IMG/VR virus record: IMGVR_UViG_3300009181_000359
Location: 1-23,154 of that record
Source: a virus
Length of the DNA stretch: 23,154 nucleotides
Reading direction: 5' to 3' (one strand)
The position numbers and the translations under genes were made by a program. The notes under the pieces were generated by a model. That model did no database searches, had not been told where the DNA came from, and saw nothing but the letters and a program-made list of their open reading frames with translations. Of the stretch, positions 1,448 through 23,008 are shown piece by piece (the first letter of the stretch is position 1; each line of letters starts with the position of its first letter).

Positions 1448-3436
1448 CTAAATAGCTGCGATGATGAACGCAAGAAGCTGGTCATAGCGGACGCCGTAAG
1501 AGTTGCCCGCCGCTCTGACTAGCTTCATAGTTCCTGTTTCAACATATTCCGTGACTTCACCAATCTCTGGGTAGTCAACTTTCACTTCTTCGTATTCAGG
1601 CTCATATTCCGCATTCCACTCATCATAGCAGAACACACCGTAATGTTCAGCAATAAGGCCTTCAGCCTCAAATGCTGTTTTCACATCTTGGGCCATGATG
1701 CCAACATGAATACGAGCATCTTCGCCCTTTTCCTCAACAGCATCAGTCCATTTGAACGCTCTCAAAAGACCCTTCAATCGAACAGCAACAGAGTGTTCTA
1801 CATCAGAAATCTGACGCACTTGTTGTTTTTTGCGTGCGTCAGATGTGTTAATTGTGCCATTGACAGCAAAGACCTCAGTCCAGCGTTCGCTCGCTGTTCC
1901 AAGCTTTGTAGTATTGTTTGCTGCTGGTCCAACGGATACGCCGTTTGGATTGAGCAATAGCAGGTCAACCTGAGATCCTGTATCACTGACGGAGAATATC
2001 ATTGAGTCTTTGCTTGCAGCAACTTGCTGTGACCGGATACGCCCGCCAACACGATAGCTATTGGTTCCGTCTGGCGGCTGAAACTCAATGCCAACACCCC
2101 GTCCATTGGAGGCGTTTGCAGTGTTTCGCACAGCCAATGGATAGAATGTTGTCCCAGAAAAACCTGACGCAAGCGTTTGATACACATCACCCTTTGGGAA
2201 CTCTGGGCCGAGAATTTTTGTTTCGAAGGTGTTAAAAACACTTGGAAACGCGTCTGCATCTACAAAACTTGCATAGTCTGTTCCATAAAAACGGTTTATA
2301 TAACCATCATTGCGAACATTTCCCAGCGTGTTGCCTTCTGTTTGATCCCCACCAATTAGCGCGTTCCACCTTGCCCCGGTAAAAGCTGATGCGCCATCAT
2401 TTTTGAAATAAACGCCATATCCGCTATTTAACTGTGCGGTAAATCCGATGATAGTGTTAAACCATGCTTGGTAAACTCGTAGACCGTCTTGCGTATTTAA
2501 TCCAGCTTCACAGTTTATCACCATACCAGCATTTGCATTTGGTGGGAAAACGCCATCATGGATGTAAAAACCATGCCGACCATTTGAACGAGCATAACAC
2601 CGCTCAATGTGGAAACAGTTGACATTTGCCCCCGCTGTATTTCCAACACGGAAAGCATCCTGCCCCATATAGTGGCCTGAGCAGTTTGTTATTTTGCACC
2701 GACCGGCAGCAATCTGGATGCCGTCCCCAGTGTTGCCTGCGATGCCTTGAATGTGGATTCCATCAATGGTTGACCCATCCTTGTCGAGCAAAATAGCTGG
2801 CCCAGAAATAGCCGCTGACTTTGTGATAGTTGTCCGCCCAAGAACACCACCAGTAAGGCTATTTCCCTCACCTACCAAAGATGTCGGGTTGGTAAGAGAA
2901 AGCCCAGACGCAATGATATAATTTCCTGCTGGAAAAAATACTGTTCCGCCACCAGATGGAATTGACGCCAATGCAGCCTGAATTGCGGCAGTATCGTTAG
3001 CTACACCGTTGCCAACTGCACCAAAATCTTTGACAGATACATAATCCTGTAAACGCGATGTGAGAACGCGGTTGACTGCACCTGTTCCGCCCTCATTATA
3101 TGTCATTTGATCTGTGAGGGATGCAGATGTGCCGGGCGTGATACCATAGCCAGACGGTGAATAGATCACCATAGCCTTGTTCTTGTCCCGCACAGTCACT
3201 GAGAAATAGCCGTTGGTATAGATAGCTGCTGGAGAGCCATTGCGCATCACATAGCCATTAGATGTGCGCAGCGGCTGCGCTGCAGGCTGTGTCAACGCAC
3301 TGTCGTAATAGACCGTGATTGGGTTAGTCTCTGGGTTCAGGTTTGCCGTCCCAAAATACAGATAGCCATTATCGAGCGGCGATCCGCTCTTGTCGGTGAA
3401 GATCGGATAGGGCGGTGCAAGCTGCGTCAGCGTCAT
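1448..3436 (-). CDS. Tailspike: P22-like head-binding domain, pectate-lyase beta-helix, S74 chaperone
   Basis: A 662-residue receptor-binding protein. Residues 1-110 look like the P22 tailspike head-binding domain (PYPIFTDKSGSPLDNGYLYFG, then TNGYFSVTVRDKNKAMV). Residues 133-155 carry the VSVKDFGAVGNG...NDTAAIQAAL entry of pectate-lyase-type right-handed beta-helices, followed by Gly/Asn-rich coils to about residue 430. A second beta region leads to an S74 chaperone with the Ser-Asp pair at 532-533 (NTSDARKK) and a GIMAQDV segment. In the family this C-terminal part is removed by self-cleavage after trimerisation. The beta-helix probably binds and perhaps cuts surface polysaccharide; catalytic residues cannot be assigned by eye. 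A strong AAGGAG lies just before the ATG. Confidence 0.92.
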   Translation of the reverse strand: MTLTQLAPPYPIFTDKSGSPLDNGYLYFGTANLNPETNPITVYYDSALTQPAAQPLRTSNGYVMRNGSPAAIYTNGYFSVTVRDKNKAMVIYSPSGYGITPGTSASLTDQMTYNEGGTGAVNRVLTSRLQDYVSVKDFGAVGNGVANDTAAIQAALASIPSGGGTVFFPAGNYIIASGLSLTNPTSLVGEGNSLTGGVLGRTTITKSAAISGPAILLDKDGSTIDGIHIQGIAGNTGDGIQIAAGRCKITNCSGHYMGQDAFRVGNTAGANVNCFHIERCYARSNGRHGFYIHDGVFPPNANAGMVINCEAGLNTQDGLRVYQAWFNTIIGFTAQLNSGYGVYFKNDGASAFTGARWNALIGGDQTEGNTLGNVRNDGYINRFYGTDYASFVDADAFPSVFNTFETKILGPEFPKGDVYQTLASGFSGTTFYPLAVRNTANASNGRGVGIEFQPPDGTNSYRVGGRIRSQQVAASKDSMIFSVSDTGSQVDLLLLNPNGVSVGPAANNTTKLGTASERWTEVFAVNGTINTSDARKKQQVRQISDVEHSVAVRLKGLLRAFKWTDAVEEKGEDARIHVGIMAQDVKTAFEAEGLIAEHYGVFCYDEWNAEYEPEYEEVKVDYPEIGEVTEYVETGTMKLVRAAGNSYGVRYDQLLAFIIAAI

Positions 3437-14844: not shown

Positions 14845-14852
14845 AGTTGTTA

Positions 14853-16121
14853 TTAGGTCTGCGAGAACAACTGAATGCCAGCCATTTCGGGCTGCAACAT
14901 CACCACACCAAACAAAGTATCCCAACGATACTTGGTCTTCTGGGTGTTGATGTCGAACTGCTTCTGCATCACCAGTTCCACGCCCTGATCGGTCGTGGCA
15001 CGCATGATGTCAGCGCCAGCATCTGTCGGGATAGCCAACGATGCGGGCAGCAATTCGATGGCGCTGCGGTGCCAGAAGCAGTTCACAGCTGCAGTCACAG
15101 TGTTCAAGAAGGTGATAGCCGCGCCGTTTGCAGGCGTTGCGGTCACGTTCTTATACTGCGCTTCAGCATCGGTCGAACCGCCATTGGAGATGATTGGCGG
15201 GCTGATCGTGACCACACCCGAACCGCCCGAACCAGAGACGATTGCGGTGATGCGGAAGGTCTTCAGAACGCCAGTGCTTTGCTTGGTGATGTGGTGAAGA
15301 GCAAAGACGTTTGCGATGGTGAACGCATCGCCAACTTTAACCGTGCCGCCACCGACAGCAATGGTCAGGTTTTGGTAGCGGTTGTCAACGTTTGCAACTT
15401 CACCCGTTGCAGCCGTCGAAGTGGCCTTGGGGGTGTAGTATTGGTTGGCGCCGTTGACCGTCACAGTTGTGCCAGCAGCCGCCGTCAGGCGGTTTGCATA
15501 GTCCATCTTGTAGGTCTGGAAGCCAGCCACTTCGCCAACGTAAGCGCGACGATACGCCTCGGTCGGGATTTGGATCATGGTCTGACGTGCAGCCAAGTCA
15601 GCCGCCATGCCGTTGTAGTCACGGGTGGACAGCGCATAGTTGCGGTCGCTCATCATCACGCCCTGCTCGTTCATCAGAGCATCAACCTCTGCAACATCAG
15701 TGAAGCCCGATGCAGCGGTGGTGCGCTTGGAAACGATAGTGCCTTGGTTGGATGCCACAGTCAGAACGGCCACGTTGATGTCAGAAGCCAGCTTCTGAGC
15801 AGCAGCCTGACCCAGACGGTTTTCTTGCAACTGGTCGCGCAGTTCTTTTGCGGTCAGCAGCGCCGTCGAGTGCTTCTGGTAGCCAATGGTCGAAGGCACA
15901 GCAAGCTGGGTTGAGTCTTTGAAGTTGGACGTAGCGTCCGAACCGTCAAACGACTGAGCAATGTAGGGTTCGGGGCGCCAGATGGTGTCCGACGAACGCT
16001 CCATCTGTTGGCCGTTGGTGTTATACTTGTTGACGAGCGAAGACAAAACGAGAGCATCATTAAAGGCGTCTAGGATGTCTTCGAACGCAACGCGTTCTTC
16101 TTTACTGAAAGAGTTTGCCAT
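14853..16121 (-). CDS. Major capsid protein, P22 coat family
   Basis: A 422-residue protein close in size to P22 coat (430). The N-terminal half holds MERSSDTIWRPEPYIAQSFDG (compare MQRSSNTIWMPVEQ in P22), LLTAKELRDQLQENRLGQAA and QKLASDINVAVLTVASNQG, which match the HK97-fold core. Residues about 210-330 would include the inserted beta domain of the P22 family. The C-terminus reads QKFDINTQKTKYRWDTLFGV then LQPEMAGIQLFSQT. AAGGA nine bases before the ATG supports the start. It follows the scaffold gene by 20 bases and is followed by a stable hairpin, as expected for the most abundant product. Confidence 0.93.
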   Translation of the reverse strand: MANSFSKEERVAFEDILDAFNDALVLSSLVNKYNTNGQQMERSSDTIWRPEPYIAQSFDGSDATSNFKDSTQLAVPSTIGYQKHSTALLTAKELRDQLQENRLGQAAAQKLASDINVAVLTVASNQGTIVSKRTTAASGFTDVAEVDALMNEQGVMMSDRNYALSTRDYNGMAADLAARQTMIQIPTEAYRRAYVGEVAGFQTYKMDYANRLTAAAGTTVTVNGANQYYTPKATSTAATGEVANVDNRYQNLTIAVGGGTVKVGDAFTIANVFALHHITKQSTGVLKTFRITAIVSGSGGSGVVTISPPIISNGGSTDAEAQYKNVTATPANGAAITFLNTVTAAVNCFWHRSAIELLPASLAIPTDAGADIMRATTDQGVELVMQKQFDINTQKTKYRWDTLFGVVMLQPEMAGIQLFSQT

Positions 16122-19145: not shown

Positions 19146-20372
19146 TCACCTTGCCATTGGCATCATTGTGACCACTGGCCGGGCCTTTGGCTTCTGCTGG
19201 ACGTTAGCCCGCCGCGCACCTTCCAGAGCATAGCGCACCGCGTCGATCACATGGTTGTCGCGGTCTTCCAGCACCGGGAGAATCTTGCCCGTCATATGAT
19301 CGGTCTTGAAACTATACAGCGTCAGTTCGTCAATCGTGTGCTTGCACCGCGGGTGAACAACGATGTCAAACGACTTCAGCCATTCAATGCCTTCCTCGAC
19401 AGACTTCGCGCCCTTGACCGCTGATTGTATCTTGGGGAAGCCATTGCGACGCATGTGGCTGATCGTCTCAGGTCTGGCACTGTCGGCCACCATTGGCCAT
19501 TTCTCAGCCTCTGGGATGGACATGAACAGCGATGGCGTGTCAACGATTTCGCAGCCGACCTGATAAGCCTCATAGTCGATGTATAGCTTGCGGCCTATGA
19601 TGTGGCAGCGAACGCAGACTGTTGGATCTGTTGCAAAGCCCCAGTCTGCACCGAACCGATGGACAGCATCCGGCGGCGCTTCAAAGTCTTCAATCACCCA
19701 GTTCTTAAACACGCGCGTTTCGCTGTTGCGAACATACTGGCCCTTCCAAACGTGCAGATATTTATCTGGATCACGTCTTAGGTCGTATTGCATCTCGTCC
19801 CGCAGCACGTCTGGAAACCACGGATTGTCGGAATAGTTGACCTCTACCACGATGCTGTCGGTTGGAGCGTTGCTTCCACGCAGCAATGATTCAACTGGAT
19901 CGTCCTCATAGCGTGGGTTCCAACTGAACAGCAACTGCGAGCCGGGCTTGCGGATTGTCGGGCGCAGCAGGTCTAACGAAAACTGGCTGATCGACTGCGC
20001 CTCTTCCACCCAAGCAATGTCAAAGCCTTCGAGCGACTTGATGCTGTCGGCTGTGTGGTTCTGCATCCCCTGAAAAATGATCACGCCACCATGCGGACAT
20101 TTGATCTCGGCCAGCTGCACCTCAAACATATGCCCAACGCCCAGTTCTTGGATCTTGTTTTCGATCAACTTCTTGACGGATTGCTTTAGTGACCTTTGCA
20201 CCTCACGAACGCAGACCACATCTGTGCGCTTCATCACGCAGCGTTCAACGATCCATTCGGCAAAGAAGGTTGACTTGCCAGAGCCACGCCCACCGAATGC
20301 GCCGATGTAGCGGGCGTGTTCTTTCTTGAGGATTGGAACAGCCCAGCGCGGGGTGTTGATGTTTAGGTTCAC
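19146..20372 (-). CDS. Terminase large subunit (packaging ATPase and nuclease)
   Basis: A 408-residue protein. Walker A is GGRGSGKST at 27-35, Walker B with the catalytic Glu is IAWVEEA at 119-125, and the coupling motif SWNPR is at 150-154. The RNase-H-like nuclease half has candidate metal Asp residues at D243 (GADWGFATDP), D297 (VADSARPE) and D377 (HVIDAVRYAL). It is of the P22/Sf6 headful type, though shorter than P22 gp2 (499). It drives DNA into the head through the portal and cuts it at the end. The start is GTG at 20372, overlapping the stop of the upstream gene by one base (TAGTG). Confidence 0.95.
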   Translation of the reverse strand: MNLNINTPRWAVPILKKEHARYIGAFGGRGSGKSTFFAEWIVERCVMKRTDVVCVREVQRSLKQSVKKLIENKIQELGVGHMFEVQLAEIKCPHGGVIIFQGMQNHTADSIKSLEGFDIAWVEEAQSISQFSLDLLRPTIRKPGSQLLFSWNPRYEDDPVESLLRGSNAPTDSIVVEVNYSDNPWFPDVLRDEMQYDLRRDPDKYLHVWKGQYVRNSETRVFKNWVIEDFEAPPDAVHRFGADWGFATDPTVCVRCHIIGRKLYIDYEAYQVGCEIVDTPSLFMSIPEAEKWPMVADSARPETISHMRRNGFPKIQSAVKGAKSVEEGIEWLKSFDIVVHPRCKHTIDELTLYSFKTDHMTGKILPVLEDRDNHVIDAVRYALEGARRANVQQKPKARPVVTMMPMAR

Positions 20373-22009
20373 TATGTGCCTGACACTAAGTTGTTGAGTT
20401 CTTCCTGCGTCATGTTCTCGGTCAGAGTCTGCGAGATTTGATCTGCTGATGTGCCAAGCATCACCGCTGCGCCAGCGATGCCATACTTGCGCACGATGCT
20501 GATAAGGTTCTCATCAAAGACAACGAAGTTGCGGGTTGCAGTACGTCCAGCAGTCTCAATCACCTTCCGCACATCGTCGCGCTCAGTTGTAGCAAATCGT
20601 TCAGCCGGGTTGCTTCTGTTGAAAAGTTGCAGAGCAATTTCAGCATCACCATTCGCCTGATCTAAAAACGCCCGCGCTTCATTAGAAATCGGGTTGTTTG
20701 GTAAGTTGGATGGCGTATAACGTGATCTTGCATCTAAAAACTTAATCCCAGGGATTCCTTTTGAGGCGAGCATATCTGATGCAATCTTGTCTCCAGATCT
20801 AGTGTTGCGTGCCGCACTAATGGCCTGAGCAATCTTGTCTGGAGAAGCATCTGGAAATATCAAAGGCAACATTTTCTCTGCACTGTTACCTTGCTTTCGA
20901 GCGACATTTACCATTGGATCGAAACCAGAAGCCTTTTTGTATAGTTCTTGTCCTGTTAGTTTATCAGAATTTGGGCCAAACATTGGCAGAATAACATTAC
21001 GCACACTATCTGACTGTTCACTCAATGGCTTTCCCCAATCAAGGAAAGTGTTGGGGTCAGCATTGATGTTGACCTCATACATGCTACCGCTAGAAACTTT
21101 CTTAGCGTCAAGCAATTTAACCACTTCACCTATTTCTTTGGCCTCCTGTCGATCAAGGTTGCCCGTCAATAGACGTTTTGCAGCATCAGCAGCCTTTTCG
21201 TAATTTCCACCTGCGTTCTTAAGCAACTCCTCGGCCTTGTAGGTAACGTAAGGCGTGAACCTGTTGCTTTGAGACAATGTATCACGGTAAGTTTTCGCCA
21301 CATCTTCAGCTTCAGCCGCATAAATCCCTGACCCATAAGCCTGTGCACCCTCACCCGTTCCCAGCTTATCCATCCGCATCCGGCCAAGCGGGAAATCCTG
21401 CAACACCTCTGCACCAGTGGGAACGTCCGGCAGCACGTCAGGCGCACCAACGATGTATTGTGTCGATCCGTCAGGCATCCGCACAAGGCGCTCAGCTGCG
21501 AAGTTATGCGGTGAGCCTTGGTAGGCGCGAATGCCCTGCGCTTCCTGCATGGCCCGCTCGGCATCAGCAAATGTCACTGGCGGTCGGCCTTCACGCGCTG
21601 CGCCCATACGCAATGCGCCAGCAGGTGCGGTTGCAGTACCAGCGCCAAGCGTCATCATGCCTGTCAGCCCTGCAATGTCGCCATAGGTCAGCGGCTGGCC
21701 TTCCATCGCTCTGCGCGGCACTGAGATGGCATCCCAAGCGCTTTGCACGGCATTACTGAGCAAGTCACCAGTGAAGCCCAGCGGGTTGGCTGTTGCCTCA
21801 CGATACGCGCCCTTGATCACCGATTGCGTTTTAGGCGGCGTCATCTCGAACAAGTATTGCGTGCCGTCGAACCGCGATCTACGGATCTTCTGGCCTAGTT
21901 CATCATAGCCAACAACAGGGTCATTTTCTGGATCAGCCCCAGCAGGCAGACGCATTGGGTCATATGCAAATCCGTCAGCCTTTGGAGTGAGAAAATCGAA
22001 AATGCCCAT
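20372..22009 (-). CDS. ADP-ribosyltransferase-like protein between the terminase genes
   Basis: A 545-residue protein starting MGIFDFLTPKADGF. Residues 163-170 (YQGSPHNF), 217-233 (GTGEGAQAYGSGIYAAE), 310-315 (MYEVNI) and 494-510 (NFVVFDENLISIVRKYG) match the ADP-ribosyltransferase fold seen in phage and mobile-element polyvalent proteins. That family would transfer ADP-ribose from NAD to a target. Residues 1-150 are a separate N-terminal part with a Gly/Ala-rich stretch at 113-136. Long helical insertions lie between the core strands. I cannot confirm catalytic residues by eye. It lies one base after terminase small subunit and overlaps the large subunit by one base. AGAGG before the ATG at 22009 supports this start over the longer frame at 22063. 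Confidence 0.82.
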   Translation of the reverse strand: MGIFDFLTPKADGFAYDPMRLPAGADPENDPVVGYDELGQKIRRSRFDGTQYLFEMTPPKTQSVIKGAYREATANPLGFTGDLLSNAVQSAWDAISVPRRAMEGQPLTYGDIAGLTGMMTLGAGTATAPAGALRMGAAREGRPPVTFADAERAMQEAQGIRAYQGSPHNFAAERLVRMPDGSTQYIVGAPDVLPDVPTGAEVLQDFPLGRMRMDKLGTGEGAQAYGSGIYAAEAEDVAKTYRDTLSQSNRFTPYVTYKAEELLKNAGGNYEKAADAAKRLLTGNLDRQEAKEIGEVVKLLDAKKVSSGSMYEVNINADPNTFLDWGKPLSEQSDSVRNVILPMFGPNSDKLTGQELYKKASGFDPMVNVARKQGNSAEKMLPLIFPDASPDKIAQAISAARNTRSGDKIASDMLASKGIPGIKFLDARSRYTPSNLPNNPISNEARAFLDQANGDAEIALQLFNRSNPAERFATTERDDVRKVIETAGRTATRNFVVFDENLISIVRKYGIAGAAVMLGTSADQISQTLTENMTQEELNNLVSGT

Positions 22010-22448: not shown

Positions 22449-22742
22449 TCAATTTGGCTGCTGTTTCAATCTGGCAACCTTATCAAGCACAGACAGGCCA
22501 AATTCCGATGTCGGATCAAACCACCATAGCGCTCTTTGGCTGCGGTCTTTATTGGCTGTGTTTCGTAAGATGCTGTGAACGCCTGTCTGTTCGTTGCGCA
22601 CTCGATTGATTGCACCGATGCAGGCATTCTTGGTCATTCCCACCAGATCGGCAGCTTTGCTGTGGCTTAGGCCCACGTTCTCGACGAGGTGCAACGCCAT
22701 TAACAGCCGCTCGTCCTTCAGTCGATCTACCGTTCCATACAT
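22449..22742 (-). CDS. GcrA-like helix-turn-helix protein
   Basis: A 97-residue protein. Residues 24-48 (GLSHSKAADLVGMTKNACIGAINRV) match the helix-turn-helix of GcrA-type regulators, in which a segment like LGGVTRNAVIGKVHRL contacts methylated DNA and sigma-70 RNA polymerase. Residues 60-97 do not look like the long C-terminal part of cellular GcrA, so this is a short relative or simply a similar HTH. It overlaps the DUF6378-like gene by 16 bases and has an AGGGGA ribosome site. Possible roles are switching late transcription or an accessory part of packaging; position just before terminase small subunit allows both. Confidence 0.75.
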   Translation of the reverse strand: MYGTVDRLKDERLLMALHLVENVGLSHSKAADLVGMTKNACIGAINRVRNEQTGVHSILRNTANKDRSQRALWWFDPTSEFGLSVLDKVARLKQQPN

Positions 22743-23008
22743 TGGATTTCCCCTGCGATTGCCAGATACCCGGCGGCATCCACATAGCTGTCAACGTGAG
22801 TTGGGTTTCCTTTGATGCGGGCGATCTTGAACAGCACCATCATCATGGAAACGTCAAGGCCATCAAAAACGCACCTGTCGCGCCCTTGCATCCACCATGA
22901 CCAGAGGTCTGCGATGTTCTCAAAGCTGTCTTCTGCATCGCCATGCGTGGCATCGCGGTCTTTGGTGATGTATTGGATTGCGGTGCTTAGGATCTGTTCG
23001 CGGTTCAT
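22727..23008 (-). CDS. DUF6378-like small phage protein
   Basis: A 93-residue all-helical protein. The residues DRDATHGDAEDSFENIADLW at the start, VSMMMVLFKIARIKGNPTHV and DSYVDAAGYLAIAGE at the end are the conserved pattern of DUF6378, a family frequent in phages. Its acidic-helix layout recalls MazG-type nucleotide pyrophosphohydrolases, but I cannot show that relationship from sequence alone. GAGG lies six bases upstream of the ATG, within the last codons of the Cys-rich mini-gene, and the two overlap as ATGA. Confidence 0.82.
   Translation of the reverse strand: MNREQILSTAIQYITKDRDATHGDAEDSFENIADLWSWWMQGRDRCVFDGLDVSMMMVLFKIARIKGNPTHVDSYVDAAGYLAIAGEIQCMER

What the first reader, a model, noticed from the sequence alone, without database searches (positions are those of the whole stretch)
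20372..22009. ADP-ribosyltransferase-like gene inserted between the two terminase genes
Seen: motifs at residues 163-170, 217-233, 310-315 and 494-510 of the 545-residue product fit the ADP-ribosyltransferase fold of polyvalent proteins, and the gene touches both terminase genes. Known: phage ADP-ribosyltransferases modify host RNA polymerase or other targets, and some are injected with DNA. Inferred: late co-expression with terminase suggests either a packaged effector that acts at the next infection or a toxin that acts late in the cell. The first 150 residues are a separate part and could be a packaging or targeting segment.
Basis: partly seen in the sequence, partly recalled or inferred. 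Interest (0 to 1): 0.62.

Follow-up and report, generated by a model that had tools for sequence, protein, structure and literature searches.

The report
Swappable effector gene between terminase genes
A bacterial virus carries, wedged between its two DNA-packaging genes, an enzyme-like effector gene (ADP-ribosyltransferase type) in a slot that related viruses fill with different effectors or leave empty, which makes it a natural experiment in how phages swap weapons they probably inject into host cells.

Summary
The gene is real: minus strand 20372-22009, 545 aa, one base after the small-terminase stop and overlapping the large-terminase start by one base. Residues ~159-520 are homologous to phage ART-PolyVal/N4-type ADP-ribosyltransferases: motif blocks are conserved in 101 relatives, 27 of 37 aligned members match PF18760, and AlphaFold2 gives six core strands in ART order. 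No solved structure matched. The catalytic strand-1 His is Gln here (Q-Y-D instead of H-Y-D); all 16 Gln versions carry one 40-residue insert.

Beyond the finding, the slot is exchangeable. Among 54 loci with a closely related large terminase (>=78% identity), 40 are filled and 11 empty, one empty with 97.8% terminase identity. Several N-terminal versions combine with at least seven payload types (ART, GNAT, LPD23 plus HEFQH motif, others). A 14-residue linker, GRPPVTFADAERAM, often marks the joint, and its nucleotide changes are mostly silent. Inside the ART domain the segments between motifs are also shuffled.

Best reading: a one-slot effector locus, MuF-toxin-like or polyvalent in style, whose product is probably packaged and injected. 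Homology and shuffling are shown; packaging, catalysis and target are inferred.

The parts
20372..22009 (-). Slot gene, 545-aa protein (P0001), between TerS and TerL
   Evidence: Open frame with ATG one base after TerS stop; stop overlaps TerL start
21590..22009 (-). N-terminal module, residues 1-140, proposed delivery or docking part
   Evidence: 85-92% identical in L007-L013, which carry different C-terminal payloads
21548..21589 (-). Linker GRPPVTFADAERAM, residues 141-154
   Evidence: Joins different N-termini to different payloads; differences mostly silent; pattern hits only 16 viral contigs
21500..21535 (-). ART motif I / strand 1, residues 159-170, with Gln164 in place of His
   Evidence: 85 of 101 relatives have His, 16 Gln; strand 160-166 in model
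21380..21499 (-). Segment V0, residues 171-210, 40-residue insert that goes with Gln164
   Evidence: 16 of 16 Gln sequences have it
21275..21379 (-). ART motif II, residues 211-245, with invariant Tyr230
   Evidence: Y230 in 101 of 101; strand 229-232
21095..21274 (-). Variable segment V1, residues 246-305
   Evidence: Discordant DNA identities between relatives
21014..21094 (-). ART motif III, residues 306-332 (MYEVNIN)
   Evidence: Conserved block; strand 309-315
20765..21013 (-). Variable segment V2, residues 333-415
   Evidence: Discordant DNA identities
20720..20764 (-). ART motif IV, residues 416-430 (GIPGIKFLDARSR)
   Evidence: Conserved block; strand 421-425
20540..20719 (-). Variable segment V3, residues 431-490, contains a UBA-like match
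   Evidence: PF14555 5.3e-5 at 443-463; V3 shared with L001 at 86% DNA identity
20450..20539 (-). ART motif V, residues 491-520, with N494 and Asp499
   Evidence: N494 in 101 of 101; D499 in all 16 Gln types; strands 493-497 and 503-509
20375..20449 (-). C-terminal tail, residues 521-545
   Evidence: Shared with L001-L004
22011..22442 (-). Terminase small subunit (gp3-like)
   Evidence: PF16677 1.7e-23
19146..20372 (-). Terminase large subunit
   Evidence: PF04466 4.9e-34

Best explanation
The gene is the current occupant of an exchangeable effector slot in the packaging operon of a P22-like phage. The N-terminal module and linker form a delivery or docking part that takes the protein into the virion. 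The C-terminal payload, here an ART-PolyVal-type ADP-ribosyltransferase, enters the next host with the DNA and modifies a host or defence macromolecule. Occupants are exchanged by recombination at the TerS-slot-TerL borders, at the linker and at the conserved ART motifs; the shuffled V0-V3 segments between the motifs would set target choice. Shown: homology, position, filled and empty slots, modular exchange, mosaicism, conservation of the linker peptide. Inferred: packaging and injection, enzymatic activity with Gln164, the role of linker and V segments, the target.
For: ART homology and predicted fold. Slot census: 40 filled, 11 empty, 3 undeterminable of 54 loci with TerL >=78% identical; a near relative with 97.8% TerL identity is empty. 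Same N-terminus with different payloads and the reverse. Linker with mostly silent differences. Mosaic ART at DNA level. ART relatives lie near TerL in 18 of 23 records where TerL was found. Published surveys place many phage ARTs by packaging genes and predict packaging (PMC9503650; PMC5512222). The N-terminal modules are as Gly/Ala/Ser/Pro-rich (37-41%) as this phage's ejection-type proteins (34-42%), against 24-25% in TerL and portal, which is weak support.
Against: No virion proteomics. The catalytic His is replaced, so activity is uncertain. No solved ART matched. N-terminal fold not predicted with confidence. The linker is not found in every slot protein. Context counts are biased by short contigs.
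Confidence: 0.6

Rival explanations
1. Late intracellular effector: an active ART made with the packaging proteins that stays in the producing cell, modifying host targets or excluding rival phages late in infection.
For: The gene overlaps the terminase genes, so late expression is expected; T4 ModA/ModB are non-packaged phage ARTs (PMC9503650).
Against: A shared, exchangeable N-terminal module in front of unrelated payloads is easier to explain as a delivery part.
Confidence: 0.22
2. Non-catalytic ART-like protein: with Gln in place of His it binds a partner or ADP-ribose but does not transfer ADP-ribose.
For: Gln164 in 16 of 101, always with a 40-residue insert.
Against: The Gln types keep Tyr and Asp without exception while His types vary at the Asp position, as expected if the site is still used.
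Confidence: 0.14
3. Packaging accessory: the protein helps terminase and its enzyme-like part is incidental.
For: Location between the terminase subunits.
Against: Absent from a near relative with 97.8% identical TerL and replaced by unrelated domains in others; homologues lie elsewhere in other phages.
Confidence: 0.04

Closest known systems
ART-PolyVal / N4-type ART (Tox-ART-HYD2 clade; PF18760; PMC5512222)
   Same: Homologous domain; strand-2 Tyr and strand-5 Asp; often near packaging genes
   Different: Gln replaces the strand-1 His; 40-residue insert; domain is a mosaic of shuffled segments
MuF polymorphic toxins of temperate phages (PMC5576092)
   Same: Constant N-terminal part with variable C-terminal effector, in the packaging module; ART among the payloads
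   Different: No MuF domain, no immunity ORF (TerL follows directly), sits between TerS and TerL, no integrase found in 16 relatives' records
Polyvalent proteins of phages and conjugative elements (PMC5512222)
   Same: Shares domain types (ART, GNAT, LPD23) and probable delivery with DNA
   Different: Small, one catalytic domain here; one fixed slot; linker peptide at the joint
T4 Alt
   Same: Works-like model: an ART carried in the head and injected with DNA
   Different: Alt is of the R-S-E clade (PMC5512222)

Membership tests
ART-PolyVal / N4-type ART (H-Y-D) | His in strand 1 | tested here: not met
   Gln164; His in 85 of 101 relatives
ART-PolyVal / N4-type ART (H-Y-D) | Tyr in strand 2 | tested here: met
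   Tyr230, invariant; strand 229-232
ART-PolyVal / N4-type ART (H-Y-D) | Asp in strand 5 | tested here: met
   Asp499 right after strand 493-497
ART-PolyVal / N4-type ART (H-Y-D) | ART split beta-sheet fold | tested here: inconclusive
   Six core strands in ART order, pLDDT 81.5, viral ART-PolyVal models matched, no solved ART matched; coordinates not inspected
ART-PolyVal / N4-type ART (H-Y-D) | Match to PF18760 | tested here: inconclusive
   27 of 37 aligned members match, best 5.3e-11; the window protein itself does not
MuF polymorphic toxins | N-terminal MuF domain | tested here: not met
   No MuF match in Pfam
MuF polymorphic toxins | Small immunity ORF downstream | tested here: not met
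   TerL starts at the stop codon
MuF polymorphic toxins | Carried by temperate phages | tested here: inconclusive
   No tyrosine integrase in 16 relatives' records, all of them possibly fragments
Polyvalent proteins | Two or more domains of the described set in one polypeptide | tested here: inconclusive
   Window: ART plus an unclassified N-terminal module; relatives L118, L119 and L232 join GNAT and ART, L013 has LPD23
T4 Alt (R-S-E ART) | R-S-E active site | tested here: not met
   Aligned positions read Q-Y-D

The most novel reading that the evidence does not exclude
A phage effector system that builds diversity at two levels: whole payloads are exchanged behind a selected linker peptide in one TerS-TerL slot, and within the ART the target-recognition segments are shuffled between fixed catalytic motifs, including a transferable Gln-plus-insert active-site variant.
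Probability: 0.4. Interest if true: 0.8.

Novelty: new variant of a known kind. Interest (0 to 1): 0.6.

Why it matters
Virion-carried effectors are widely predicted but hard to study because the delivery part and the payload are usually not separable. Here related phages supply the same N-terminus with different payloads, the same payload with different N-termini, and a near-identical empty slot, so packaging, target and fitness can each be tested by comparing natural variants. The linker peptide is a concrete candidate for a packaging, docking or cleavage signal, and the Gln-type ART tests how fixed the catalytic His of this family is.

Tried and rejected
Pfam, PHROGs and NCBIfam scans of the window protein alone gave no ART match; the link needed relatives. 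The first full-length AlphaFold2 run with 40 sequences was poor (pLDDT 62) and was not used for fold claims. PDB fold and profile searches found no ART. Weak single matches (single-stranded-DNA-binding protein, arginine decarboxylase extension) were discarded as chance. The idea that the linker is only a DNA recombination site was set aside because its nucleotide differences are mostly silent, though a recombination role in addition is not excluded. A packaging-accessory role was rejected because a near relative lacks the gene. Named isolates with the same slot occupant were sought and not found: Xanthomonas phage PBR31 (TerL 68%) has only a small ORF before TerL, and the genome-collection search gave only more distant terminases. 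Papers on MuF toxins and viral ARTs were read in part; no paper describing this slot turned up in the searches made.

Full report
Observation. The gene is on the minus strand, 20372-22009, 545 aa. It lies in the late operon of a P22-like phage, in a virus record of 23,154 bases (portal PF16510, coat PF11651, scaffold, P22 tail-accessory and Hc3-like proteins). The ATG is one base after the TerS stop and the TAG overlaps the TerL GTG.

ART domain. Alone, the protein matches no ART profile. Its relatives settle the homology. A viral-contig search gave 80 loci, a second search with a domain alignment gave more, and 27 of 37 aligned members match PF18760 ART-PolyVal, best 5.3e-11. In the 101-row alignment, motif residues are invariant across very diverse sequences. 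AlphaFold2 on residues 155-527 gave pLDDT 81.5 and pTM 0.76, with strands at 160-166, 229-232, 309-315, 421-425, 493-497 and 503-509 (numbers shifted by 154); this is the order expected for the ART core. Foldseek matched phage proteins including several ART-PolyVal models (22 matches at E<=0.001) but no solved structure at that level. I could not inspect coordinates.

Active site. The family is described as having His in strand 1, Tyr in strand 2 and Asp in strand 5 (PMC5512222). The window has Gln164, Tyr230, Asp499. Of 101 sequences 85 have His and 16 Gln; all 16 Gln sequences also have a 40-residue insert after motif I and keep Tyr and Asp, whereas His types show D, N, S, R or Y at 499. One His-type (L236) has a similar insert. 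On a tree built without these columns the Gln label needs 9 changes, at least 5 forced by well-supported branches. Because the gene recombines, the tree is only a rough guide, but the motif-I-plus-insert piece clearly occurs on different backgrounds.

The slot. With TerL as query, 54 loci at 78% identity or more were classified: 31 with an occupant in a closed reading frame (one of them, L116, a 160-aa remnant), 9 with a partial one cut by a contig end, 11 empty, 3 undeterminable. The window is not among these 54. Below about 76% TerL identity no occupant with these modules was recognised, and where TerS could be placed it directly precedes TerL. In L086, TerL is 97.8% identical and the flanks are 84-92% identical in DNA, but TerS runs straight into TerL. 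The gene is therefore dispensable cargo at an exact site. Two further scans added a handful of loci with the same pattern.

Modules. N-terminal versions (MGIFDF, MGIFDL, MAIEDL, MKLIDP, DRLAEL; some share parts and are distantly related) combine with ART, 'SYSRGF', 'ARIIPTV', GNAT, LPD23 with a HEFQH motif suggestive of a zincin peptidase (L013), and other payloads. The same payload occurs behind different N-termini: 'ARIIPTV' behind at least three, 'SYSRGF' behind two, the L110 payload behind two. Payload names in quotes are sequence tags for domains I could not identify.

Linker. The peptide GRPP[VL]TFxxxxRAM sits at the joint in many of these proteins, twice in L093 and L310. A degenerate DNA pattern for it hits only 16 contigs in IMG/VR, and those I inspected hold slot proteins. 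Between the window and L083, which differ on both sides, the linker has 4 silent and no amino-acid-changing differences; the second L093 copy has 8 and 3, L172 8 and 5. Selection on the peptide is the simplest reading, but it is a short stretch. Not every slot protein has it: L013, L096, L118 and L121 were not matched by the pattern.

Mosaic ART. Between the motifs, segments V0-V3 have separate histories. At DNA level L001 and L003 share V2 at 94.7% while V1 and V3 do not align; L020 and L022 share V1 at 93.7% but not V0 or V2; the window shares V0 with L002 (87%) and V3 with L001 (86%), and V1/V2 with neither. Ends of high-identity blocks fall at residues ~6, 120, 150-160, 168, 233-236, 426 and 491-493, mostly at the linker and motif edges. 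29 pairs show such discordance. I did not run a formal recombination test, and some loci could be chimeric assemblies, although the same joints recur in independent samples.

Function. Shown: homology, exchange, conservation of the linker peptide. From the literature: phage ARTs are often encoded by terminase, portal and capsid genes and about 44% lie in contexts suggesting packaging (PMC9503650); here 18 of 23 ART relatives with a detected TerL lie within 5 kb of it, with a bias from short contigs. Inferred: injection, catalysis, target. V3 contains a UBA-like match just above the Pfam cut-off, a weak hint that V segments bind partners. The GC3 of residues 246-490 (0.40) is lower than that of TerL (0.66), as expected for exchanged DNA.

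Comparison. It works like a MuF polymorphic toxin or a small polyvalent protein, but it is not a MuF toxin (no MuF domain, no immunity gene) and strictly is a Q-Y-D variant of the H-Y-D ART family. I call it a new variant of a known kind.

Noticed in passing
residues 443-463 of the protein, window 20621-20683, minus strand: UBA-like match (PF14555, 5.3e-5, just above its cut-off) inside variable segment V3; also found in one other member of the alignment.
   Followed up: partly
window 14847-15914, plus strand: 355-codon open frame antisense to the coat gene; probably a by-product of codon use, not checked.
   Followed up: no
window 1448-3436, minus strand: Tailspike with pectate-lyase-like helix and a C-terminal S74 chaperone domain; a weaker S74-like match in the next gene, 702-1439.
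   Followed up: no
window 22727-23008, minus strand: Small DUF6378 protein (4.9e-28) upstream of TerS.
   Followed up: no
L116 1210-1692: Slot gene reduced to a 160-aa N-terminal remnant, perhaps a decaying occupant.
   Followed up: no
L110 239-3442: Slot protein whose N-terminus joins the MGIFDL start to a DRLAEL-type body, so N-terminal modules recombine too.
   Followed up: partly
L192, L193, L198, L199 (Mycobacterium sp. KBS0706): Several terminase loci very like those of Inquilinus limosus in a genome labelled Mycobacterium; the label may be wrong.
   Followed up: no
BK063671.1 32537-33139: A related ART in a virus assigned to Methanomicrobiales (27% identity), so the family may cross into archaeal viruses.
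   Followed up: no
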